64,000 bases of DNA from Bacteroidota bacterium (lineage in GTDB: Bacteria; Bacteroidota; Bacteroidia; Flavobacteriales; Schleiferiaceae), in assembly GCA_024742495.1 (NCBI GenBank), contig JANSYJ010000004.1, positions 1-64,000 of the forward strand, in the 5' to 3' direction. Under the pieces are notes generated by a model. It was not told the origin of the DNA. It did no database searches and saw only the letters and a program-made list of their open reading frames with translations. Both the position numbers and the translations under genes were made by a program. This document shows, piece after piece, positions 1 to 23,005 of the stretch (positions within the stretch are counted from its first letter, which is position 1; each line of letters opens with the position of its first letter).

Positions 1-402
1 AACCACGTGGGACGAATTGTCATTATCCTGATTTGCCAAACCCTGTTCTCCGGAAAGAATAGAGGGATATTTCCGCCAATCTCTTTGGCTCTTCTGGCTT
101 TCATTTCCCTGAAAACCACCGTAAATCCGCAAGCCCGGTTTCAAGCGAAAAGTACAGGCTCGTTTATCCGTAGGAATCACTCCGCTTGTATCTAAGCTGG
201 GAATATAAGTTCCCTGGGCTACCCAAACTTCCTCACCACTCAGACCTAGGCTTAAAGCCGATTGTAAATCTGTAAATGCATTAGCCCAAGAACTGCCATC
301 ATTGCTACCCGTAGCAGCATGGTTTACATAATGGATAGTTTGGGCCCCGATCGGAAAACTAATACTGAGGATCGCTAATAAAATGAATCGCTTTGCTAAC
401 AT
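1..402 (-). CDS. N-terminal part of a secreted beta-helix-type surface protein (truncated by window edge)
   Basis: The reading frame opens at an ATG (402-400) and stays open to base 1, so only the first 134 residues are visible. It begins with a signal peptide (MLAKRFILLAILSISFPIGA, then Q), followed by a segment of the type NHAATGSNDGSSWANAFTDLQSAL, a 'VWVAQGTY' strand and a 'LRIYGGFQGNE' strand. This pattern (GxSWxxAxxxLQxAL, then VWVAxGTY, then YGGFxGxE) is what I know from large Bacteroidota secreted proteins with right-handed parallel beta-helix or polymorphic-outer-membrane-type repeats, which usually end in a T9SS sorting domain. That end lies outside the window, so the secretion route is inferred. 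The protein is predicted extracellular or surface bound; no enzymatic role can be assigned. Confidence 0.75.
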   Translation of the reverse strand, partial: MLAKRFILLAILSISFPIGAQTIHYVNHAATGSNDGSSWANAFTDLQSALSLGLSGEEVWVAQGTYIPSLDTSGVIPTDKRACTFRLKPGLRIYGGFQGNESQKSQRDWRKYPSILSGEQGLANQDNDNSSHVV

Positions 403-458
403 AGATGTGATAAGGTTAAGGTGGCCAAAAAATTTTTGTTTTAAAGACGAAGCTGCCT

Positions 459-466
459 CAAATATA
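459..466 (-). promoter_or_regulatory. Bacteroidota -7 element (TATATTTG) for the secreted protein at 1-402
   Basis: On the minus strand the sequence reads TATATTTG, a perfect TAnnTTTG match. It would give an untranslated leader of about 50 nt before the ATG at 402. No clear -33 element is visible, so support rests on the -7 box and its position. Confidence 0.5.
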
Positions 467-567
467 AGAATCCCCTTTATGACTCCCTAAGAAGAAAACA
501 GCTCCTTCGATCAAATTTAAGGTCGAATTTAAAAGTAGGCGATTAAGGTTCTGCTCCTTTTATGGTG

Positions 568-670
568 TCGCCCTAAATCAAGTGCCAAACCACGCTTCCC
601 GATCTAGACTGCGATATTGAACGGCCTCTGCCACATGTTTTGCTTCTATATCCTCCGAAGCTTCCAAATC
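568..670. repeat. Direct repeat, copy A of the comM 3' end (103 bp)
   Basis: Bases 568-670 match 1827-1929 in the same orientation with only two differences (593 versus 1852, and the C/T-type difference in the His codon). The repeat covers the last 30 codons plus stop of comM and about 10 bases beyond the stop. Both differences are silent in the comM frame (Ala GCG/GCT, His CAT/CAC). The matching stops abruptly at both ends. Confidence 0.95.
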
Positions 671-877
671 TATTAATGAATCTCGTTTACCAAAGCCTAG
701 GTCAGGATGACTATCCTCTTCATTTTCAGACAACACCTTTTTACACTGATTACATACTTTAGCTTCTCTCATTGTATAAGCTGTTTTAAAGGCCTCCGGA
801 ACCTTATCAATATTTGATAGGGCTCTTACCGCTGCATTATACTCCTCCTTTTGCCGTGCACCAAGCAATGTTCCCAA
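578..877 (-). pseudogene. Chimeric reading frame: fragment of an unknown gene fused in frame to the comM 3' end
   Basis: The frame opens with TTG and no convincing start signal, and the same frame is closed by TGA shortly upstream. Its first ~69 residues match nothing I recognise; they include a CNQC motif (C-x2-C) and an acidic stretch. Its last 30 residues are identical to the C terminus of ComM and are read in the comM frame up to the same stop. I infer that recombination joined the 3' end of comM to the middle of an unrelated small gene. The preceding 826-963 frame may hold the lost N-terminal part, which would require one frameshift. Expression as a protein is doubtful. Confidence 0.55.
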
Positions 878-963
878 AAGGGATCCTGCAAGTCTACTTC
901 AGCAATTTGCTTCTCAGAGACCCAGGCTTCCCATGCACTTTGACGCGAGGCTTTAAATTTCAT
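826..963 (-). other. Short open frame, possible N-terminal remnant of the disrupted gene at 578-877
   Basis: A 45-codon frame starts at ATG 963 with MKFKASRQSAWEAWVSEKQI and continues through EVDLQDPFW before a stop at 826. Its composition (Trp/Glu/Lys-rich amphipathic helix) looks coding. It overlaps the start of the 578-877 frame in another register, so the two together could be one ~110-codon gene broken by a frameshift. I do not recognise the protein. Intact small gene, remnant and chance frame all remain possible. Confidence 0.3.
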
Positions 964-1167
964 TCTAGGCTTAAGGTTCTTTGGCTCAGGTTGCTCGTGG
1001 TATTTGGATTATGGATTGATTTTCCGAAAGAGGCTAAAAATAGGATTTTCCTGTAAGGCACATGGCCATCGGGTGGCCTAATGGTTTTCAGCTTAGATGG
1101 TTGAGCTCCGGGGATGCCTACCTACTTTGGAACGGAACGAATACCGCTAATTTATTCACGCTGTTTC

Positions 1168-1695
1168 TTACTCTTCTTTGTGTTTAAATCCTATCGATAC
1201 TCTTGGGCTTTTTTGTTCTTTAATGAACTGTTTCAAGTAGTTGAATATGAGTTCTATTTTATCATCCTGTCCACTTACTTTTTTGCGGATCTCTTCCATT
1301 TCAATAAGCAGATCCTTATGGGTTAAGAGCATTTCCCGCATTTTCACAAAGACTTCAATTATGCTTATGCTCATTTGAACGGCCCTGCCACTTCTTAGAA
1401 CATTGGCGAGTTGTAAAACACCATGCTCTGTAAAAACATAAGGTAAAGTGCCGCCCAGCTGTTGTTTGGAAGGTATCGCATTTTGCGATACCATGGTTTC
1501 GGTCTCTTCTTCTGTGAGTTGGAACATGAAGTTTTCAGGGAAGCGTTCAGCATTTCTTTTCACTTGCTCCCTGAGTCTTATCGCTTTTACACCATATAAT
1601 TCTGCCAAGTCTCGATCCAACATTACTCGCTGATCACGAACCACATATATCTTCCTTAAAATCGTTTCTTGAGGTACTAAATCTGTATCCGCCAT
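1168..1695 (-). CDS. ORF6N-domain DNA-binding protein
   Basis: The 175-residue protein has the ORF6N (Pfam PF10543) hallmarks: an N-terminal IYVVRDQRVMLDRDLAELYGV stretch, then the LREQVKRNAERFPENFMFQLT helix pair, then TLPYVFTEHGVLQLANVL. A C-terminal amphipathic helix (about 120-165) is likely a coiled coil for oligomerisation. ORF6N/KilA-N proteins are phage-related DNA-binding modules, often called antirepressors, and are frequent and sporadic in Bacteroidota genomes. I chose ATG 1695 rather than an in-frame TTG 15 bases upstream because the domain starts just after it. It is the only intact gene inside the comM-flanked islet. It may be a regulator or the remnant of a larger mobile element; its target cannot be read from the sequence. 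Confidence 0.85.
   Translation of the reverse strand: MADTDLVPQETILRKIYVVRDQRVMLDRDLAELYGVKAIRLREQVKRNAERFPENFMFQLTEEETETMVSQNAIPSKQQLGGTLPYVFTEHGVLQLANVLRSGRAVQMSISIIEVFVKMREMLLTHKDLLIEMEEIRKKVSGQDDKIELIFNYLKQFIKEQKSPRVSIGFKHKEE
1472..1492. repeat. Perfect 9-bp inverted repeat inside the ORF6N gene
   Basis: GGTATCGCA and TGCGATACC flank a 3-base spacer. The site lies within codons for MVSQNAIP of the ORF6N protein. It could form a hairpin or be a protein-binding palindrome, or it could be chance within coding sequence. Confidence 0.6.
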
Positions 1696-1826
1696 GCTTC
1701 TTATTTTCAAATTTCAAAACCATCCATATTCATCTCTTGGAGACATGCCTTCAAGAGAATTTAAACAAAGACTAATTGCCTAAAATCGGTAGTTTAGACC
1801 AATTGGAATAATGGGGGACTTACAGT

Positions 1827-1929
1827 TCGCCCTAAATCAAGTGCCAAACCAAGCTTCCCGATCTAGACTGCGATATTGAACGGCCTCTGCCACGTGTTTT
1901 GCTTCTATATCCTCCGAAGCTTCCAAATC
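1827..1929. repeat. Direct repeat, copy B (3' end of intact comM)
   Basis: This is the copy that forms the real C terminus of comM. It is identical to 568-670 except for two silent differences. The two copies lie 1259 bp apart in direct orientation. Confidence 0.95.
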
Positions 1930-3378
1930 GGCAATGGTGCGCGCTACCTTCAAAATACGATCATAAGCCCGGCCACTGAGGTTTAATTTTTCGATGGCCA
2001 ACTTTAGCAATTCCATACTGGGGGCGTCTAGCTTGCACACTTTCCGCAATTGCTTGCTGTGCATTTGGGCATTGCTGTAAATTCCCGACTCCACTTTAAA
2101 GCGCTGATCTTGCTTTGCTCGAGCTCCTAAAACCCGCTCCCTAATTTTAAGACTGCTTTCCGCAGCGGCGGTGGAGGATATTTCCTCAAAGGGCACCGGG
2201 GTCACCTCTACATGCAAATCGATGCGATCTAGCAATGGACCGGATATTTTACTCAGGTAATTCTGCACCAAATTAGGGGAGCAAACACATTCCTTTTCGG
2301 GGTGATTGAAATAACCACAGGGACAGGGATTCATGGAGGCCACTAGCATAAATGAGGAAGGGAAATCAACACTGATCCGAGCCCTGCTGATGGTCACCTT
2401 TCGGTCTTCCATCGGCTGCCGCATTACCTCTAATACGGTGCGCTTAAATTCGGGCAGTTCATCTAAAAACAAAATACCATTATGGGCCAAACTGATTTCT
2501 CCCGGTTGTGGATAGCCGCCACCACCAACCAGGGCCACATCGGAAATAGAGTGATGGGGACTGCGGAATGGACGCTGGGTGACTAGGCTTTGATTCGCCT
2601 CTAGTCTACCAGCCACGGAGTGAATTTTAGTGGTCTCTAAGGCCTCTTCTAAAGACATCGGTGGCAAAATGCCCGACATGCGTTTGGCCAACATGGTTTT
2701 TCCCGCTCCCGGTGGCCCGATGAGAATTACATTATGACCACCAGCCGCGGCGATTTCCAAGGCTCTTTTCACATTCCCCTGTCCGCGCACCTCGGAAAAG
2801 TCGAAAAACAAATGTTTAGACTGATCCCGCAATTGCGCACTTACATCTACCTCCGTTTTTGCTATTAGCTGCTCTCCACTTAAGTGATCTACCGCCTCCC
2901 GTATAGTTGGGGCACCATAAACGGAAATACCCTCCACCATCGCTGCTTCGCGTGCATTGGCCACCGGTAGGAGCACCGCCTTAAAACCTTCGCGCTGGGC
3001 CTGCAACACCGAGGACAAAACACCAGTAATGGGCACCAAGCCGCCATCTAAAGAAAGCTCCCCCAAAATTAAATAGTCTTCTAAATCATGAAATTCCATT
3101 TGCTTGGAAGCGGCTAAAACCCCTAAGGCGATCGGTAAATCATAAGCAGAACCTTCCTTGCGAATATTGGCCGGTGCTAAGTTTACGGTAATCTGAATGC
3201 CCGGCCACTTTAAATCATTGTTCTTTAAGGCAGCTACTATGCGGTGTTGGCTCTCCTTAATTGTAGAATCTGGCAGGCCAACCAGAAAGAAATTTATGCC
3301 CTGGTCGGTATGGGTTTCTACTGTAACCGTGGTTGCATTTACGCCAATAACCGCACTGGTATAAGTTTTAATTAACAT
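1837..3378 (-). CDS. comM: ComM/YifB family Mg-chelatase-like AAA+ ATPase
   Basis: This 513-residue protein has the full family architecture: an N-terminal S5/Lon-protease-like ChlI domain (about 20-140), an AAA+ core with Walker A GPPGAGKT at 221-228 and a LFLDELPEF Walker B, a CPCGY...CxC cysteine cluster near 350, and a C-terminal Mg-chelatase domain (about 405-500). ComM is a hexameric helicase that promotes branch migration during natural transformation in Vibrio and Acinetobacter. Length and start (ATG 3378, with MLIKTYTSAVIG as in homologues) are normal. The last 31 codons are duplicated downstream at 568-670. The gene stands alone, with no competence gene adjacent. Confidence 0.95.
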   Translation of the reverse strand: MLIKTYTSAVIGVNATTVTVETHTDQGINFFLVGLPDSTIKESQHRIVAALKNNDLKWPGIQITVNLAPANIRKEGSAYDLPIALGVLAASKQMEFHDLEDYLILGELSLDGGLVPITGVLSSVLQAQREGFKAVLLPVANAREAAMVEGISVYGAPTIREAVDHLSGEQLIAKTEVDVSAQLRDQSKHLFFDFSEVRGQGNVKRALEIAAAGGHNVILIGPPGAGKTMLAKRMSGILPPMSLEEALETTKIHSVAGRLEANQSLVTQRPFRSPHHSISDVALVGGGGYPQPGEISLAHNGILFLDELPEFKRTVLEVMRQPMEDRKVTISRARISVDFPSSFMLVASMNPCPCGYFNHPEKECVCSPNLVQNYLSKISGPLLDRIDLHVEVTPVPFEEISSTAAAESSLKIRERVLGARAKQDQRFKVESGIYSNAQMHSKQLRKVCKLDAPSMELLKLAIEKLNLSGRAYDRILKVARTIADLEASEDIEAKHVAEAVQYRSLDREAWFGT

Positions 3379-3489
3379 GCTTAGACTATTTTTTAGTGCT
3401 TTAAAACATTAATCGACCAGTTTAGACCTAAAGCTCGGGCAAACAGCCTCAATTTAATGGAGGTTTATTTTTATGAATTCAAAATTATT

Positions 3490-3497
3490 TAGATTTG
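3490..3497 (+). promoter_or_regulatory. Putative -7 element (TAGATTTG) upstream of the 85-aa gene
   Basis: A perfect TAnnTTTG match 49 bp before the ATG at 3547. No clear -33 box is present. Confidence 0.4.
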
Positions 3498-3546
3498 CAT
3501 TTCAATTTTCAGGAAGGATTATTTAAACATTTTTAAACTCTTATTT

Positions 3547-3804
3547 ATGTCTAGAGTACCAAAGTCAGCGCACACGCCAAAGCAAGTAGCGCAGTATTTA
3601 AAAGATCAAATTGCCGTGCGCGGGGAGCGCGGATTAAAAAATGCTTTTGCAGCTCAATTCTTTTCGCATTTTACCGCGGATGAATTAGAAGATTTATCAA
3701 GCTCCTTTCAGCGCGAACTACAAAATCGTTCTGAAGCGGAAATCGCTCACTTACGTAATATGTTAGAAGCAAAAAGCGGCAAAACCGTAGAGCTAAGAGA
3801 CTAA
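3547..3804 (+). CDS. Small hypothetical cytoplasmic protein (85 aa)
   Basis: I do not recognise this protein. It is soluble and predicted almost all-helical. An N-terminal basic segment ([20 protein letters not shown]) precedes a central segment with two Phe-rich helices and a Glu/Arg-rich C-terminal helix. There is no signal peptide, Cys or known motif. It is likely a real gene because it sits alone between a good -7 box and a strong terminator hairpin, with normal codon use. It lies just before recA on the same strand but is separated from it by that terminator and by recA's own promoter, so it is probably not co-transcribed. Confidence 0.65.
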
Positions 3805-3833
3805 GAACTTAGCGCTAAAACGTTTTAAAAATG

Positions 3834-3867
3834 ATAAGGCTCATTTCTGTGAAGAAGTGAGCCTTAT
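3834..3867 (+). terminator. Hairpin terminator between the 85-aa gene and recA
   Basis: A 15-bp stem (ATAAGGCTCA...TGAGCCTTAT plus five inner pairs, one of them G-T) closes a GTGA loop. The U tract behind it is weak, so termination may be partial. Confidence 0.6.
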
Positions 3868-3895
3868 TTATGTTCGAGCACTGCCTCTAGCACCC

Positions 3896-3903
3896 TATAT
3901 TTG
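3896..3903 (+). promoter_or_regulatory. recA -7 element (TATATTTG)
   Basis: A perfect TAnnTTTG match ends 25 bp before the recA ATG at 3929. It lies downstream of the preceding hairpin and upstream of the chosen start, and so excludes the longer GTG-initiated reading (3857). No inverted repeat resembling a LexA box was noticed. Confidence 0.55.
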
Positions 3904-3928
3904 CTCAGCAAAGAAAAACATCAATTTC

Positions 3929-4927
3929 ATGAGTGACGATAAAAGCGCAAAGCTGAAAGCTTTAAAGCTAACCTTAGATAAGCTGGACAAAACCTACGGA
4001 AAAGGCGCGGTAATGCGCATGGGAGATTCGGCCATAGAAGAGATTGCCGTTATCCCATCTGGTTCCTTAGGAATCGATTTGGCCTTAGGCGTATCCGGTT
4101 ATCCACGCGGCAGAGTGGTAGAAATTTACGGGCCAGAGAGCTCGGGTAAAACCACCCTTACCCTGCACGCCATTGCCGAAGTGCAAAAGCAGGGAGGCAT
4201 AGCAGCCTTTATTGATGCGGAACATGCCTTTGATAGAATTTATGCGGAAAACCTTGGTATTAATACCGAAGACCTCATCATCTCTCAACCAGACAATGGC
4301 GAGCAAGCCTTGGAAATTGCCGATAACCTTATTCGCTCCGGCGCCATTGATTTAATTATCATCGACTCGGTGGCGGCTCTTACACCAAAAAGCGAGATTG
4401 AAGGTGAGATGGGTGACAGCAAAATGGGCCTTCAAGCACGTTTAATGTCCCAAGCCCTCCGTAAGCTTACCGGAACCATTAGCAAAACAAATTGCTGCTG
4501 CGTTTTCATTAATCAGCTTCGTGAGAAAATCGGGGTGATGTTTGGAAATCCAGAAACCACCACCGGTGGTAATGCCCTAAAGTTTTACTCCTCGGTGCGT
4601 ATCGACATTCGCCGTATCTCCCAAATTAAAGATTCGGAAGGCGTTACCGGAAACCGTGCCCGGGTGAAAGTGGTGAAAAACAAAGTTGCTCCTCCTTTTA
4701 AACAAGCGGAATTCGATATCCTTTATGGAAAGGGAATTTCTAAAGTTGGGGAAATCATCGACTTAGGTGTAGATCACGAAATTGTGAAAAAATCAGGCAG
4801 CTGGTTCAGCTACGGCGACACCAAATTAGGTCAGGGACGAGATGCCGTGCGTCAACTCCTAGAAGACAATAGCGAATTGGCGGAAGAAATTGAAACCAAA
4901 ATAAAAGCGAGCATCGCCGCTAAATAA
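3929..4927 (+). CDS. recA: Recombinase RecA
   Basis: The 332-residue protein is RecA: Walker A GPESSGKT at 68-75, Walker B LIIIDS, the [15 protein letters not shown] segment and the [23 protein letters not shown]2-region hallmark. It forms ATP-dependent filaments on single-stranded DNA for homologous recombination and repair. I chose ATG 3929 ([12 protein letters not shown]) because the -7 box lies between it and the only longer alternative. The C-terminal acidic tail is short. It is monocistronic, bounded by a terminator at 4949, and no recX follows. Confidence 0.98.
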
Positions 4928-17010: not shown

Positions 17011-18408
17011 ATGGATAAATTCGACGTAGCCATAATTGGCTCGGGTCCTGGGGGCTATGTTGCCGCCATTCGCTGTGCTCAATTAGGTATGAAAACGGCC
17101 ATTATTGAGAAATACGCTACCCTTGGCGGCACTTGCTTAAACGTAGGTTGTATTCCTTCCAAAGCTTTATTAGATAGCAGCGAGCATTTTCACAATGCCC
17201 ATAAAAACTTCGCCGATCACGGTATTGAAATCGATACGCCAAAGGTGAACTTCGAGCAAATGGTTGCACGTAAGCAAGGCGTTGTAGATCAAACTACCGG
17301 TGGTATCCAGTTTTTAATGGACAAAAATAAAATCACCGTTTTTGAAGGTCTTGGTTCTTTTGTAGATGAGCATACCATCGCCATAAAAGGCAAAGAGGAG
17401 CAAAAGATAGAGGCTAAAAATATCATTATCGCTACTGGTTCAAAACCTACGGAACTGCCTTTTGCCAAATTCGATAAAGAACGCATTATCAGCAGCACCG
17501 AGGCTCTTAAACTTTCTGAGGTTCCAAGTAAAATGCTCGTAATTGGAGCCGGAATTATTGGTCTAGAATTAGGTAGTGTTTACGCCCGCCTAGGAGCGGA
17601 AGTACAAGTTATTGAATACTTGGATCGTGCGATTCCAACTTTTGATGGCGCCATGAGTAAGGAAATCACCAAGTCTTTGAAAAAGCTTGGAATGAAATTC
17701 CACTTTAACCATAAAGTGAGCGATGTAAGTCGCAATGGTGAGCAAGTAACTGTTACCGCTACCAATAAAAAAGATGAAGAGGTAAAATTTGAGGCCGATT
17801 ACTGTTTAGTGGCAGTGGGGCGCAGCGCTTATACCGATGGATTAAATCTAGAAGGTGCTGGATTATCTGCTGGCGAACGCGGTAAAATTGAGGTGAATGA
17901 TCATCTGCAAACCGCCAAGTCTCATATTTACGCCATTGGCGATGTTATAAAAGGCGCCATGTTGGCCCATAAGGCTGAAGAAGAAGGCGTGTTTGTAGCC
18001 GAACTTTTAGCTGGTCAAAAACCACATATCAATTACGATCTTATTCCAGGGGTTGTTTATACTTGGCCAGAGGTGGCTAGCGTAGGTAAAACCGAAGAAG
18101 AACTTAAGGAGCAAGGCGCATCCTATAAATCGGGATCTTTTCCATTCCGTGCTTTAGGTCGAGCCAGAGCGAGTGGCGACATTGAAGGATTAGTGAAAAT
18201 TTTGGCGGATAAAGAAACTGATGAAATTTTAGGCTTCCATGTGATTGGCCCAAGAGCAGCAGACCTTGTAGCAGAGGGGGTTGTGGCGATGGAGTACCGC
18301 GCTTCAGCGGAGGATATTTCCCGTATGAGTCATGCCCATCCGACCTTTGCCGAAGCGGTAAAAGAAGCAGCTTTGGCCGCTACCGATAATCGTCCGCTTC
18401 ATGTGTAA
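17011..18408 (+). CDS. lpdA: Dihydrolipoyl dehydrogenase (E3)
   Basis: The 465-residue flavoprotein has the FAD-binding GSGPGGYVAAI, the redox disulfide in GGTCLNVGCIPSKALL, an NAD-binding GAGIIGLELGSVYARLGAEV and the catalytic His-Glu pair in MSHAHPTFAEAVKEAAL. It reoxidises dihydrolipoamide for pyruvate and 2-oxoglutarate dehydrogenases and the glycine cleavage system; gcvP, the P-protein of the last complex, also lies in this window at 42491. No E1 or E2 gene is adjacent. It has its own -7 box and is followed by a terminator-like hairpin, so it looks monocistronic. Confidence 0.97.
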   Translation: MDKFDVAIIGSGPGGYVAAIRCAQLGMKTAIIEKYATLGGTCLNVGCIPSKALLDSSEHFHNAHKNFADHGIEIDTPKVNFEQMVARKQGVVDQTTGGIQFLMDKNKITVFEGLGSFVDEHTIAIKGKEEQKIEAKNIIIATGSKPTELPFAKFDKERIISSTEALKLSEVPSKMLVIGAGIIGLELGSVYARLGAEVQVIEYLDRAIPTFDGAMSKEITKSLKKLGMKFHFNHKVSDVSRNGEQVTVTATNKKDEEVKFEADYCLVAVGRSAYTDGLNLEGAGLSAGERGKIEVNDHLQTAKSHIYAIGDVIKGAMLAHKAEEEGVFVAELLAGQKPHINYDLIPGVVYTWPEVASVGKTEEELKEQGASYKSGSFPFRALGRARASGDIEGLVKILADKETDEILGFHVIGPRAADLVAEGVVAMEYRASAEDISRMSHAHPTFAEAVKEAALAATDNRPLHV

Positions 18409-18432
18409 TTGAGATTCTTATTATAAAAACAG

Positions 18433-18460
18433 TGGGGGTGGCTTAATTGCCCCCCCTTTT
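18433..18460 (+). terminator. Probable terminator after lpdA
   Basis: A GC-rich hairpin (GTGGGGGTGGC facing GCCCCCCC, one mismatch) is followed by TTTTT. It overlaps an upstream TTG that could extend the next gene, and so argues for the ATG at 18498. Confidence 0.6.
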
Positions 18461-18497
18461 TACTTATTTTAGGCTCTGCTTTGTTTATGTCTTGGGA

Positions 18498-21400
18498 ATG
18501 CGCAATATAAAATGGGCCTACATTAGTTACATTTTGCTGATAATCTTTATCAGCTTTTTGCTTTATTTATTTCTGAAAAGCAGTCATAAAGAGCAAGCTC
18601 ATGATGCCCAACGCATTAATATTACGGGCCGACAGCGAATGCTCTCGCAGCGCATTACCAAAGAAGCACTCCACCTAACGGAATACACCCAAGTAGCGGA
18701 AGTACAGCGAAATTGCACCGACCTCAATAGTGCCTTAAATACCTTTTTGGATGAAGAAGCGGCCTTGAAAGACGGTCCCCTTTATTGGAAGGTAAAACTA
18801 GAAACCCGCCTAGCGGTGGATTCTTTGCATAAGCGACATCAAGGTTTACGAGATCGGTTTATTGGCAATGCCCAAAAACTCAATCAATACTGCCAGGGTA
18901 AAATTTCGGCCCAAGAAGCGAGAGTGTATGCCTTGGCGCTTTTGGATGACAGCGATTACATGCTGGTTTATCTGGAGAACATGGTTGAATTTTTCGCCAA
19001 GGATTCCCAAATCAAAGATGATGAGCAATTAAAGTTCAACAACATTGCTTTCGCAACGGTGGCTTTCACCTTCATCCTTCTGTCTATCCTCTTTTTCCTG
19101 CCTATTTTCCAACAGCATAAACGGGAGTATGCGGCGCGAATGAAAAGCCTTCAGACCAGTAGGGAAAGTGGTAAAAAGCTGAGCCAACTTTTGGAATCTG
19201 AAAAAGAGTACAGTCTCGAATTGCAAAGGCAAAGGAATGCCCTTGCCATGAGTCAGGAAGAACTAAAAAGCTACTTGAAGGAAATTGAGCAGGCCCGCGA
19301 AAAATTAAAGCTTAGTGAAACCGAATTGTTGAGTGTTATCGACAATTTACCGGTGGGAGCTATCTTAATGCAAGGTGATAGTTTAAAAGCCAATAAAGTC
19401 ACTCAGGAGATTATCGGCTTTGAAGCCGCCGAAGTTGACACCGCCAAAAAGTTTTTTGAAAAGGTATATCGGGATAATTCCACCGACATTCAAAGTCAAT
19501 ACCGCGACATCTTGAATGAAGGCAGCATTGAGCCCTTTCTCTTCCCCATTTATCGTAAGGATGGCCAGCGTCGAATAATAGAATTTGGCGGACACAAATT
19601 TGGTCGCGGGGTAGTTTGGACATTATTAGATGTAACCGACAAACGCCGTGCCGAGCAAAGCTTAAAACGGAATGAAGAAGCCATTCGCAAGCTCTACAGT
19701 ATTTCTTCCGATCGGAATTTAGATTTCGATGGTAAGGTGAAGAAAATCCTCGAATTAGGGACGGAACGCTTTAAGCTGCCTACCGGAGTAGTAACCAAGT
19801 TTCATCACCCTAGTCAAACTTATATGGCCATTTACGGCCATAGCACCAATGGAAGCGTGGATATTGGCCGAGAGCTGCCGCTGAAAGGAACCTTGAGTGA
19901 GATGATACTCCGCAGCAACAATGCCGTAGGTTTTAACGATGCCCAATCAGCGCCAGACTTCATCAATGAAATTGAGAACTTCCCAATTCAGGCCTACCTT
20001 GGTGCTCCCATAGAAACAGAATCGGGGATTTTCGGAACCTTAAACTTCAATAGTCCCAAGGAAACTTCTCGGGCTTTTACGCAGAACGATTTAGATTTAT
20101 TGCGCTTAATAGCCCGCTGGCTAGGCGCGGAAATCACCGCCGAACAATCGCGTAAGGAAATTATTAGCGCTAGAGACAAGGCCGAATCAGCCGCCAAGGC
20201 AAAAAGCGAGTTTTTAGCCACGATGAGTCATGAGATCCGAACCCCTATGAATGGGGTTATTGGCATGACCTCCCTCCTGCTGCAAACCCATCTGGATGAG
20301 GAGCAAAGGGACTTTGTAAATACCATTCGCTTAAGTGGTGATACCCTCTTGAGTATTATAAATGACATTCTCGACTTCAGTAAAATAGAAGCCGGGAATA
20401 TGGATTTGGAGGAATATCCCTTCTCGGTGAAGCAATGTGTGGAGGAGAGCATTGAACTGTTATCCAATAAAATTGCAGAGAAGAACTTAGAGCTGATTTA
20501 CAGCGTTGATCCTAAAATCCCTAATTATATAGTTGGTGATATTACCCGTTTGCGGCAAATCCTCATTAACCTTCTTACCAATGCGGTGAAATTCACCGAA
20601 GCGGGGGAAATTGAAATTAAAGTGGAGCTGGAGCATTTCGCCAATCAAGAATACACGGTGCATTTTTCAGTTAGGGATACGGGAATTGGAATGAGCGAGA
20701 AACAACAAGAAAAGTTGTTTAAAGCCTTTAGTCAGGCGGATAGCTCTACCACAAGAAAATATGGCGGAACGGGATTAGGCTTGGCCATATCGCAAAGACT
20801 CACGGGCTTAATGAGCGGTAAAATTTGGGTAGATAGTAAAGCAGGACAAGGCTCTACCTTCCATTTCACCCTAAAAGCCAAGCAGGCCGAAAACCAACAG
20901 GATAATAATATTGATGAAATCCTACAGAGCCTTCGCAATAGGCGCGTGCTGTTGATTGATGACAACAATACCAACCTTCGCGTACTGCTGAAGCAATTGC
21001 GTTTATGGGGCATGCAAGCCTTTTCTGAATCGGATCCGAGGATTGGTTTGGAAACGGCCATGAAGCAAAACATTGAAGTGCTGATTACCGACTACGAAAT
21101 GCCGATGTTAAATGGCCTCGACCTCAGTAGGAAGCTAAAAGTTGATAAGCCCGATTTACCCATATTGATGCTTAGCTCGGCTTATCTGGATATTGATCCG
21201 GAGGAAAAAGACAAACTCTTTAATTACTACCTCTCTAAGCCGGTAAAGCATTCGCAGTTACTGAATTGCCTGGGTAGCATTTTTAAAGATCAAAAATCGA
21301 AAATTGCCGAGGCTAAAGATGAGGCTCTAGGAGAACGCCTTTTATCGGACCTAGGCAAAGACTTTCCCTTGCGTATCCTATTGGCAGAAGACAATGCCGT

Positions 21401-21746
21401 AAACCAAAAGCTGGCGGTGCTTACCTTAAAAAAGATGGGCTATGATGCCGATATTGCCGCCAATGGCTTAGAGGTATTGGAAGCCCTGGAGCGACAAGAA
21501 TACGACCTGATTTTTATGGATATTCAAATGCCAGAGATGGACGGTATGGAAGCCACCGGAGCAGTGATTGAACGCTATGGAAAAGAGCGACCGGCTATTA
21601 TTGCCATGACCGCTAATGCCATGGAGGGAGATCGTGAAAAGTTTATGGCTACTGGTATGGATGATTATGTCACCAAGCCTATTAACCTGCGGATCATCCA
21701 AAATATGTTACGCAAAGTTTACCTCAAGGAGTATTCTGCCGAATGA
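18498..21746 (+). CDS. Hybrid sensor histidine kinase with PilJ/NIT-like periplasmic domain, PAS, GAF and two receiver domains
   Basis: The domain order in the 1082-residue protein is as follows. TM1 is near 6-28. A periplasmic helical domain begins with RINITGRQRMLSQRITKEAL, the P-box-like signature of PilJ N-terminal/NarX-type sensors. TM2 is near 180-200, then a coiled coil, a PAS domain (about 280-385), a GAF domain (about 400-545), HisKA with His578 (MSHEIRTPMNGVIG), HATPase_c (LTNAVKFTEAG, GIGMSE, GGTGLGLAIS), REC1 with Asp865 (ITDYEMPM) and REC2 with Asp1008 (MDIQMPEMDG). Both receivers retain Lys and acidic residues. No Hpt domain is present, so the output goes through another protein. 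It is the first gene of a run with pabB, tilS and dsbD. Confidence 0.92.
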   Translation: MRNIKWAYISYILLIIFISFLLYLFLKSSHKEQAHDAQRINITGRQRMLSQRITKEALHLTEYTQVAEVQRNCTDLNSALNTFLDEEAALKDGPLYWKVKLETRLAVDSLHKRHQGLRDRFIGNAQKLNQYCQGKISAQEARVYALALLDDSDYMLVYLENMVEFFAKDSQIKDDEQLKFNNIAFATVAFTFILLSILFFLPIFQQHKREYAARMKSLQTSRESGKKLSQLLESEKEYSLELQRQRNALAMSQEELKSYLKEIEQAREKLKLSETELLSVIDNLPVGAILMQGDSLKANKVTQEIIGFEAAEVDTAKKFFEKVYRDNSTDIQSQYRDILNEGSIEPFLFPIYRKDGQRRIIEFGGHKFGRGVVWTLLDVTDKRRAEQSLKRNEEAIRKLYSISSDRNLDFDGKVKKILELGTERFKLPTGVVTKFHHPSQTYMAIYGHSTNGSVDIGRELPLKGTLSEMILRSNNAVGFNDAQSAPDFINEIENFPIQAYLGAPIETESGIFGTLNFNSPKETSRAFTQNDLDLLRLIARWLGAEITAEQSRKEIISARDKAESAAKAKSEFLATMSHEIRTPMNGVIGMTSLLLQTHLDEEQRDFVNTIRLSGDTLLSIINDILDFSKIEAGNMDLEEYPFSVKQCVEESIELLSNKIAEKNLELIYSVDPKIPNYIVGDITRLRQILINLLTNAVKFTEAGEIEIKVELEHFANQEYTVHFSVRDTGIGMSEKQQEKLFKAFSQADSSTTRKYGGTGLGLAISQRLTGLMSGKIWVDSKAGQGSTFHFTLKAKQAENQQDNNIDEILQSLRNRRVLLIDDNNTNLRVLLKQLRLWGMQAFSESDPRIGLETAMKQNIEVLITDYEMPMLNGLDLSRKLKVDKPDLPILMLSSAYLDIDPEEKDKLFNYYLSKPVKHSQLLNCLGSIFKDQKSKIAEAKDEALGERLLSDLGKDFPLRILLAEDNAVNQKLAVLTLKKMGYDADIAANGLEVLEALERQEYDLIFMDIQMPEMDGMEATGAVIERYGKERPAIIAMTANAMEGDREKFMATGMDDYVTKPINLRIIQNMLRKVYLKEYSAE

Positions 21747-23005
21747 TGAAACGTCTTCGCCTCCCTTTACAGCATGGGGCCTCGATTATCGATTCCATTG
21801 AAAACCTAGCCCGTCAAAGTGAGCATTGCCTTATTTTAGATTCCCATCATCATGTAGATGCCTATGGCAAATTTGAGCGCCTCATTGCCTGGGATGCACA
21901 TGCGGTATTAAAAACAGATGGTCCAGATCCTTTGCAAGAACTGCAGGCCTTTAGAGCCAAACATCAAGACTGGTTATTAGGCCACTTTTCTTTCGACCTA
22001 AAAAACAAATTGGAGCCTTTGGAAAGCAGCAATAGCTCTCCCTTCGCTTGGGCGGATTTGCAGTTTTTTGCGCCCAAAAACCTCGTTTTTTGTCAAAAAG
22101 GGCAATGGTTCTTAGAGTCGAGTAGCTTTAAAAGCGCTGAAGAACTGCAGCAGGCCTGCCACCAAGATATGCCAACAGATAGGCCTCCATTACAATATCA
22201 AGCGCAAAGCAGTTTAAAGGATTACCTCGATGATATTTCCTCCTTAAAAAAGGAATTGCAATATGGATCGATTTACGAGATAAACTACTGCACCCTCTTT
22301 GAAGCCCGCGGCCCGCTGGAACCCTTTGCCCGGTATCGCGCATTAAGGCAAAAGCACCAAGCACCTTTTGGAGGCTATTATAGAGATCATAGTCAACACT
22401 TACTATGCTTTTCCCCCGAACGCTACCTGCGGAAAATCGGCAATAGCCTTATCTCCCAACCGATTAAGGGTACCACTCCACGCCATCCTGATCCCGAAAA
22501 GGATGAAGCTCAAAAGGCACATCTACTCGAATCGGAAAAAGAGCGAGCTGAAAATGTGATGATAGTAGATTTGGTCCGAAATGACCTCTCGCGCACTGCC
22601 CGTAAAAACTCGGTTTCGGTGCCAGAGCTTTTTGGCCTCTATAGCTTTAAGGCCGTTCATCACATGATTAGCACCGTGCGCAGTGAACTCAATGCAGAAA
22701 AATACAGCGCCGAAGATGCCATTCGCTTTTCCTTTCCAATGGGAAGTATGACTGGCGCTCCAAAAATATCGGCCCTAGAACTCATTGATAAGCACGAGCA
22801 TTTTAAGCGAGGCATCTATTCCGGATCGATTGGTTACTTTGATCCCGAAGGAGATTTCGACTTTAACGTGGTTATCAGAAGCATTCAGTATCAGGAAGAA
22901 TTACAAATTGCCCAGGTAGCCGTGGGCAGTGCCATTACCATACATTGTGATGCGGAAGCTGAATATAAGGAATGTCTCTTAAAGGCTGAAAAGCTCATCC
23001 GCTAA
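21743..23005 (+). CDS. pabB: Aminodeoxychorismate synthase component I
   Basis: The 420-residue protein is a chorismate-utilising enzyme: FSPERYL, ERAENVMIVDLVRNDLSR, then FPMGSMTGAPKISALELID and SGSIGYFDPEGDFDFNVVIRS. The PIKGT motif at 240-244 has the Lys nucleophile typical of PabB; anthranilate synthase TrpE has PIAGT. It makes 4-amino-4-deoxychorismate for folate synthesis, using ammonia from a glutaminase partner (PabA) not found here. The start ATG overlaps the kinase stop (ATGA), implying translational coupling. The N-terminal ~150 residues are divergent, as usual in this phylum. Confidence 0.93.
   Translation: MMKRLRLPLQHGASIIDSIENLARQSEHCLILDSHHHVDAYGKFERLIAWDAHAVLKTDGPDPLQELQAFRAKHQDWLLGHFSFDLKNKLEPLESSNSSPFAWADLQFFAPKNLVFCQKGQWFLESSSFKSAEELQQACHQDMPTDRPPLQYQAQSSLKDYLDDISSLKKELQYGSIYEINYCTLFEARGPLEPFARYRALRQKHQAPFGGYYRDHSQHLLCFSPERYLRKIGNSLISQPIKGTTPRHPDPEKDEAQKAHLLESEKERAENVMIVDLVRNDLSRTARKNSVSVPELFGLYSFKAVHHMISTVRSELNAEKYSAEDAIRFSFPMGSMTGAPKISALELIDKHEHFKRGIYSGSIGYFDPEGDFDFNVVIRSIQYQEELQIAQVAVGSAITIHCDAEAEYKECLLKAEKLIR

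What the first reader, a model, noticed from the sequence alone, without database searches (positions are those of the whole stretch)
568..1929. Duplicated comM 3' end flanking an ORF6N islet
A 103-bp segment containing the last 30 codons plus stop of comM occurs twice in direct orientation (568-670 and 1827-1929). About 1.15 kb with an ORF6N-domain gene lies between. Both of the two differences are silent in the comM frame. This is compatible with copies that each served as the end of a working comM, for example an incoming element that carried its own comM end. comM is a known island-insertion site elsewhere. No integrase is present, so the element would be non-autonomous or a remnant.
Basis: partly seen in the sequence, partly recalled or inferred. 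Interest (0 to 1): 0.6.

Follow-up and report, generated by a model that had tools for sequence, protein, structure and literature searches.

The report
Copied comM end beside toxin cluster
The end of a housekeeping DNA-uptake gene has been copied twice, most likely by rearrangements around a toxin and adhesin gene cluster that came to lie next to it, so the repeat is probably rearrangement debris rather than the two ends of a small mobile element.

Summary
The 103-bp direct repeat is real (568-670 and 1827-1929; 2 differences, both silent) and an ORF6N gene lies between. comM's 3' side is changed here and undisturbed in two same-genus relatives, so "something came in" is right. The proposed element bounded by these repeats is not supported. 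(1) The genome has a third tail copy on contig C9, inside an 818-bp, 92%-identical duplicate of window 262-1059, without ORF6N. (2) On the comM side the repeat stops where a broken end of an IS3-family (IS407-type) insertion sequence begins: 1714-1824, 12 bp past the comM stop. (3) comM's old neighbour gene sits near the end of contig C24, followed by IS debris and the 3' end of a T9SS-secreted gene X, whose 5' end is window 402-1. Contigs C28, C9, C3 and C24 end inside X copies; C9 and C3 are collinear with one region of relative G005. Best reading: a cluster of RHS-type genes, X and a pilus/type II secretion operon lies beside comM; the comM tail was fused to the region before X, that unit was duplicated, probably through recombination among X copies, and IS-linked change left ORF6N at comM. 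Ordinary in kind; contig joins and order of events unproven.

The parts
1837..3378 (-). comM, intact, 513 aa (stop codon at 1837-1839)
   Evidence: ORF list; Pfam Mg_chelatase, ChlI, Mg_chelatase_C
1827..1929 (-). comM tail, copy R (the end of the working comM)
1825..1828 (.). GTTC, presumed 4-bp target of the IS (other end lost, so not provable)
   Evidence: matching 4-bp flanks in 3 of 4 intact copies in G005
1714..1824 (+). 3' end of an IS3-family (IS407-type) element: last codons of the transposase and the terminal inverted repeat; the rest is missing
   Evidence: about 90% to four 1183-bp copies in G005; family
1168..1695 (-). ORF6N-domain gene, 175 aa from ATG, intact
   Evidence: the relatives' ORF6N genes lie elsewhere than their comM match
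1060..1132 (.). stretch between module and ORF6N; window 951-1132 resembles (65%) C9:18995-19175, around the 5' end of an RHS-core frame
671..1059 (-). 'module': 389 bp of apparently decayed coding sequence of unknown origin, also on C9 (94%)
578..877 (-). 99-codon frame that joins the module to the comM tail
   Evidence: the junction is shared by copies L and B
568..670 (-). comM tail, copy L (detached)
403..567 (.). region between tail L and gene X; C9 copy 90%
1..402 (-). 5' part of gene X, a presumed secreted protein (the full-length G005 relative has a T9SS sorting tail); runs off the contig end
262..1059 (.). block duplicated at the right end of contig C9 (21388-22205), 92%

Best explanation
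The repeat is a by-product of rearrangement, not a pair of attachment sites. A cluster with RHS-type genes, T9SS-secreted X genes and a pilus/type II secretion operon came to lie between comM and its old convergent neighbour. In that process the last 30 codons of comM plus about 10 bp became joined, on one side to the region before gene X and on the other side to a 389-bp module. That unit (module, comM tail, 160 bp, X) was then duplicated, most likely through recombination among the X copies: one copy is next to comM (L), one at the end of the RHS genes on C9 (B). An IS407-type element landed 12 bp past the stop of the working comM; later loss of most of the IS and of what followed left the ORF6N gene next to it. 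Shown: three tail copies, the 818-bp duplicate, the IS remnant, the displaced neighbour, X ends at the ends of four contigs, undisturbed sites in two relatives, C9 and C3 collinear with one G005 region. Inferred: that C28, C9, C3 and C24 are joined through X copies in one array, that recombination at X made the duplicate, and the order of events.
For: Third tail copy at C9:21797-21899 inside an 818-bp, 92% duplicate of 262-1059. IS end at 1824 next to GTTC. In G002 and G003 the stops of comM and a convergent gene overlap; in this genome that gene is at C24:71217-73193, 1.8 kb from the contig end, and that 1.8 kb holds IS debris and the C-terminus of X. X 5' ends at C28, C9 and C3; X 3' ends at C9, C3 and C24. 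C9:1314-16756 and C3:647-12498 match one G005 region in order, with X lying between them there. L and B share the same module/tail junction. X 5' parts 98% against 90% just upstream, as expected if X copies are kept alike by recombination.
Against: The join of the four contigs is not in the assembly; a separate circular C9+C3 replicon would also fit the X ends. A simple tandem duplication does not by itself place X directly before orf1. No uninterrupted copy of the module was found in this genome or in 58 others, so the event that joined module and tail is not reconstructed. The tail is more alike between L and B (1/103) than its near flanks (39/554; Fisher p 0.013), which a plain duplication does not predict.
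Confidence: 0.65

Rival explanations
1. A site-specific integrative element inserted at the comM 3' end, restoring the gene with its own tail; the repeats are attL and attR and the ORF6N islet is its remnant.
For: Direct repeats at a gene's 3' end, intact gene, undisturbed site in two relatives.
Against: Third tail copy with the same non-comM flanks on another contig, without ORF6N; likeness on the comM side is cut by an IS end; no integrase or recombinase noticed among the reading frames listed for the window's first 8 kb, C9, C3 and the C24 end, of which only some were scanned against Pfam or NCBIfam; none of 81 usable comM loci has a full second tail; 24 exact bases of the tail match no viral contig.
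Confidence: 0.08
2. Tandem duplication of one long unit (comM tail, 160 bp, X, RHS genes, module) followed by IS-linked loss of the first X and RHS copy beside comM.
For: Explains why module and tail are joined at the same base in L and B, why X follows both detached tails, and why R shares about 10 bp past the stop with L and B.
Against: No native end of the module found; X next to orf1 needs a further crossover; only 12 bp past the comM stop of R is left to test.
Confidence: 0.3
3. Gene conversion: the tail copies are kept alike by ongoing recombination with working comM.
For: Tail 1/103 differences between L and B against 39/554 in near flanks; both variable sites among the three copies are silent.
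Against: Very few sites; chance or constraint could do the same; two of the three codon changes just upstream of the tail alter the protein, which speaks against constraint there.
Confidence: 0.2
4. Assembly artefact at a contig end.
For: The window begins at contig base 1 and four contigs end in copies of the same gene.
Against: L, B and R differ from each other and the L/B flanks differ by 2-10%, so they are not one locus assembled twice; the repeat lies 568 bp or more inside the contig.
Confidence: 0.05

Closest known systems
Rhs loci with downstream orphan or displaced toxin tips (Salmonella LT2; PMC3967940, abstract and passages seen)
   Same: RHS genes with extra tip fragments; the authors propose locus duplication followed by homologous recombination
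   Different: There the recombining homology is within rhs genes; here the shared repeats are a secreted-protein gene X and its upstream region with a housekeeping-gene tail; nothing tested experimentally
E. coli rhs C-terminal tips with an H-repeat (PMC3032704, passages seen)
   Same: IS-like repeat reported with RHS tips
   Different: Here the remnant is IS3/IS407-type and half of the remnant-bearing stretches show no RHS core
IS3 family, IS407 subgroup
   Same: IS3-type transposase; matching 4-bp flanks in 3 of 4 intact copies of the relative G005
   Different: Only fragments were found in this genome's assembly
AbaR islands in comM of Acinetobacter baumannii (PMC7253598, passages seen)
   Same: comM as a place where foreign DNA is found
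   Different: AbaRs commonly disrupt comM; here comM is whole and the change is past its stop

Membership tests
Integrative element with att sites at a gene 3' end | Direct repeat exactly bounds the element and restores the gene | tested here: not met
   Likeness on the comM side stops 2 bp from an IS end; third tail copy with the same foreign flanks elsewhere
Integrative element with att sites at a gene 3' end | Integrase or other site-specific recombinase, or a helper copy | tested here: inconclusive
   None noticed between the repeats or among listed frames of C9, C3 and the C24 end; not every frame was scanned and the rest of the genome was not searched for a helper
Integrative element with att sites at a gene 3' end | Empty site in relatives | tested here: met
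   G002 and G003: comM abuts its convergent neighbour
IS3 family, IS407 subgroup | IS3-type transposase | tested here: met
   NF033516 173 bits against cut-off 160 and rve domains for the second frame of the G005 copy; the window keeps only the last codons
IS3 family, IS407 subgroup | 4-bp target duplication | tested here: met
   GTGA, GTGG, GGTC in 3 of 4 G005 copies, the fourth mismatched; subgroup rule from a PMC10045372 passage. Not testable in the window, one end only
Rhs locus with displaced tips | RHS core domain in the cluster | tested here: met
   TIGR03696 above cut-off in the 3213-codon and the 386-codon frames of C9 and in a C21 frame; the 2323-codon frame of C9 matched no family; no RHS core in the first 13 kb of the window
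Rhs locus with displaced tips | Variable tips with cognate immunity genes | not tested
   Neighbouring small frames have no matched function; toxin and immunity roles are guesses from position
ORF6N-domain protein | PF10543 above gathering score | tested here: met
   112.4 bits against 27.8

The most novel reading that the evidence does not exclude
The comM tail travels with the X unit as a homology arm: because each detached unit carries a near-perfect comM end, a circle freed by recombination among X or tail copies could reinsert beside comM, making comM a self-reinforcing landing site for toxin/adhesin cassettes without any integrase.
Probability: 0.06. Interest if true: 0.5.

Novelty: new member of a known kind. 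Interest (0 to 1): 0.25.

Why it matters
It shows how a perfect-looking gene-end repeat can mimic the two ends of an integrative element: the third copy, the IS end and the displaced neighbour only appear when the rest of the genome is searched. If the inferred array is right, it documents duplication at an RHS/T9SS locus in Flavobacteriales-like bacteria, with a housekeeping-gene end caught up in it.

Tried and rejected
RNA families in the first 4 kb: none at E up to 1. Tail core in genome contigs (29 bases, exact) and viral contigs (24 bases, exact): no match in either; these collections may leave out this genome. Plasmids and phages: one plasmid match, in the ORF6N gene only (Legionella oakridgensis record, 69.7%); no phage match. 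The module as a known family: only sub-threshold Pfam matches for the fused frame and no match outside this genome among 59 searched.

Second comM tail elsewhere: 93 loci given to (80 and 13 of the comM loci from the whole-genome searches, not all of those), 81 usable with at least 1.5 kb downstream, 12 skipped (three named records and nine short stretches); one 23-nt partial match in L175, not followed up and treated as chance; G003 is counted twice among the 81 (L035, L107). In the same call X-like frames at 31-33% identity turned up downstream of comM in 2 of 81 loci (L127, L129). I did not follow them up; at that identity they may be unrelated secreted proteins, but they leave open that such genes settle near comM elsewhere. 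X itself matched in 6 of 36 genomes, orf1 in 3 of 20, one of them a weak frame with stops.

My first attempt to compare codons before the junction failed and was redone. IS remnants and RHS: an RHS core lies on 5 of 10 remnant-bearing stretches (window, C24, C22, C2 and C30 have none) against 0 of 15 control stretches; the stretches differ in length and several are short RHS-rich contigs, so this is only suggestive. Literature: the listings (10 of 842 shown) showed no paper on this arrangement; five searches cannot show that none exists, and only passages of the cited papers were seen.

Full report
Observation. The 103-bp direct repeat is present at 568-670 (L) and 1827-1929 (R), 98% identical without gaps. 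R is the end of an intact 513-codon comM on the minus strand (1837-3378). L is detached: its frame is joined to codons that are not comM (578-877). The three copies in the genome code for the same 30 residues and stop; the two variable sites are third codon positions. An ORF6N gene (PF10543, E 1.3e-32) lies at 1168-1695.

A third copy. A search of the own genome finds three tails at E up to 0.001: L, R and one on contig C9 at 21797-21899 (B). B is part of an 818-bp stretch, 92% identical to window 262-1059, at the very end of that 22,205-bp contig. B therefore has the same neighbours as L: the 'module' (671-1059) on one side, about 160 bp and the start of gene X on the other. There is no ORF6N gene beside B; the genome's one ORF6N match is the window's. 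Identity between L and B by segment is 97.9% in X, 90.3% between X and the tail, 99.0% in the tail and 94.1% in the module, which also has a 20-nt gap. The tail differs from its near flanks with p 0.013 (1/103 against 39/554) or p 0.033 against all flanks, a weak hint of conversion with comM or of constraint.

The comM-side edge. Window 1714-1824 matches the last 111 bp of a 1183-bp insertion sequence found four times in the same-genus genome G005. Its transposase is IS3-family (HTH_Tnp_1 and rve domains). Three of the four G005 copies have matching 4-bp flanks (GTGA, GTGG, GGTC), the fourth does not (ACTT/GGTT). A 4-bp duplication is the rule for the IS407 subgroup (PMC10045372, passage seen). 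In the window the IS end stops at 1824, 12 bp before the comM stop, and GTTC follows it. The likeness between L and R stops 2 bp from that IS end, so this edge of the '103-bp repeat' is where the IS cut the homology. In the own genome's assembly only fragments of this IS were found (16 matches, the longest 174 bp).

The changed site. In G002 and G003 the comM stop overlaps the stop of a convergent 664-668-codon gene, next to a DUF3857/transglutaminase gene (domain names from the own genome's copy). In the window's genome these genes are near the right end of contig C24 (71217-73193 of 75,027). Past that gene, C24 has IS debris and, in its last 160 bp, the C-terminal end of an X-family gene. 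Other same-genus genomes differ again: in G006 comM is followed by a TraB/PrgY/gumN-family gene (family of the G003 relative) and in G005 by other genes, so this side of comM varies within the genus.

Gene X and the contig ends. The full-length relative in G005 has 627 codons and a T9SS sorting tail. X 5' ends lie at C28 (the window, 402 to 1), C9 and C3; X 3' ends lie at C9, C3 and C24. The body between them was not found on any contig, as would happen if near-identical copies collapsed. C9:1314-16756 and then C3:647-12498 are collinear with one G005 region. On C9 this covers a 2323-codon frame of no matched family and a 3213-codon frame with an RHS core; on C3 it covers orf1 and an operon with GspE/PilB-, secretin- and GspF/PilC-type genes. 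In G005 X lies between the two parts. The C9 stretch 17977-22205 (an LRR gene, a further RHS-core frame, small frames, module, tail B, X start) is not matched in G005 by that search. With the orientation of the ends, the simplest chain is comM - IS end - ORF6N - module - tail L - X - RHS genes - module - tail B - X - orf1 - operon - X - C24 debris - old neighbour. This chain is inferred; C28-X-C24 with C9+C3 as a separate circle also fits.

How it most likely arose. One event joined the comM tail to the module and to the region before X; L and B share the joint. A later event duplicated that unit. Recombination among X copies is the likely cause, since they are more alike than their flanks and, in the inferred chain, direct repeats. 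The IS and loss of neighbouring DNA then shaped the comM side and left ORF6N there. Duplication followed by homologous recombination is what the authors of PMC3967940 propose for a Salmonella rhs locus (abstract and passages seen), and IS-like H-repeats are reported with rhs tips in E. coli (PMC3032704, passages seen).

Against the attachment-site reading. The module matched in 1 of 59 genomes, this one. Of 93 comM loci given to, 81 could be judged and none has a full second tail; one has a 23-nt match. ORF6N relatives occur in 11 of 36 genomes, this one included, and none lies in the 81 downstream stretches. No integrase was noticed in the stretches listed, though not every frame was scanned. 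Exact searches for the tail core in viral and genome collections found nothing.

Verdict. The element it drew is not supported: the repeat is best read as debris of duplication and IS activity at the edge of a larger cluster of RHS-type, T9SS and secretion genes. Ordinary in kind, instructive as a mimic.

Noticed in passing
own genome C21, C22, C6, C2, C31, C11, C24, C30, C4 and window 1714-1824: Fragments of one IS3/IS407-type element, no intact copy in the assembly; an RHS core lies on 5 of 10 fragment-bearing stretches and on 0 of 15 control stretches.
   Followed up: partly
L025 (C21:1-8000), 1153-4255: Two IS fragments flank several small frames and an RHS-core gene with its neighbour, like a cassette between IS debris.
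   Followed up: no
L030 (G005:C1:1622000-1627000): The one intact IS copy whose 4-bp flanks do not match (ACTT/GGTT), as if two copies had recombined.
   Followed up: no
L175: A 23-nt partial repeat of the comM end about 0.5 kb downstream of comM.
   Followed up: no
L127 and L129: X-like frames (31-33% identity) 1 to 3.5 kb downstream of comM in two distant relatives.
   Followed up: no
downstream side of comM in G002, G003, G005 and G006: The genes following comM differ between same-genus genomes, so this flank is variable in general.
   Followed up: partly
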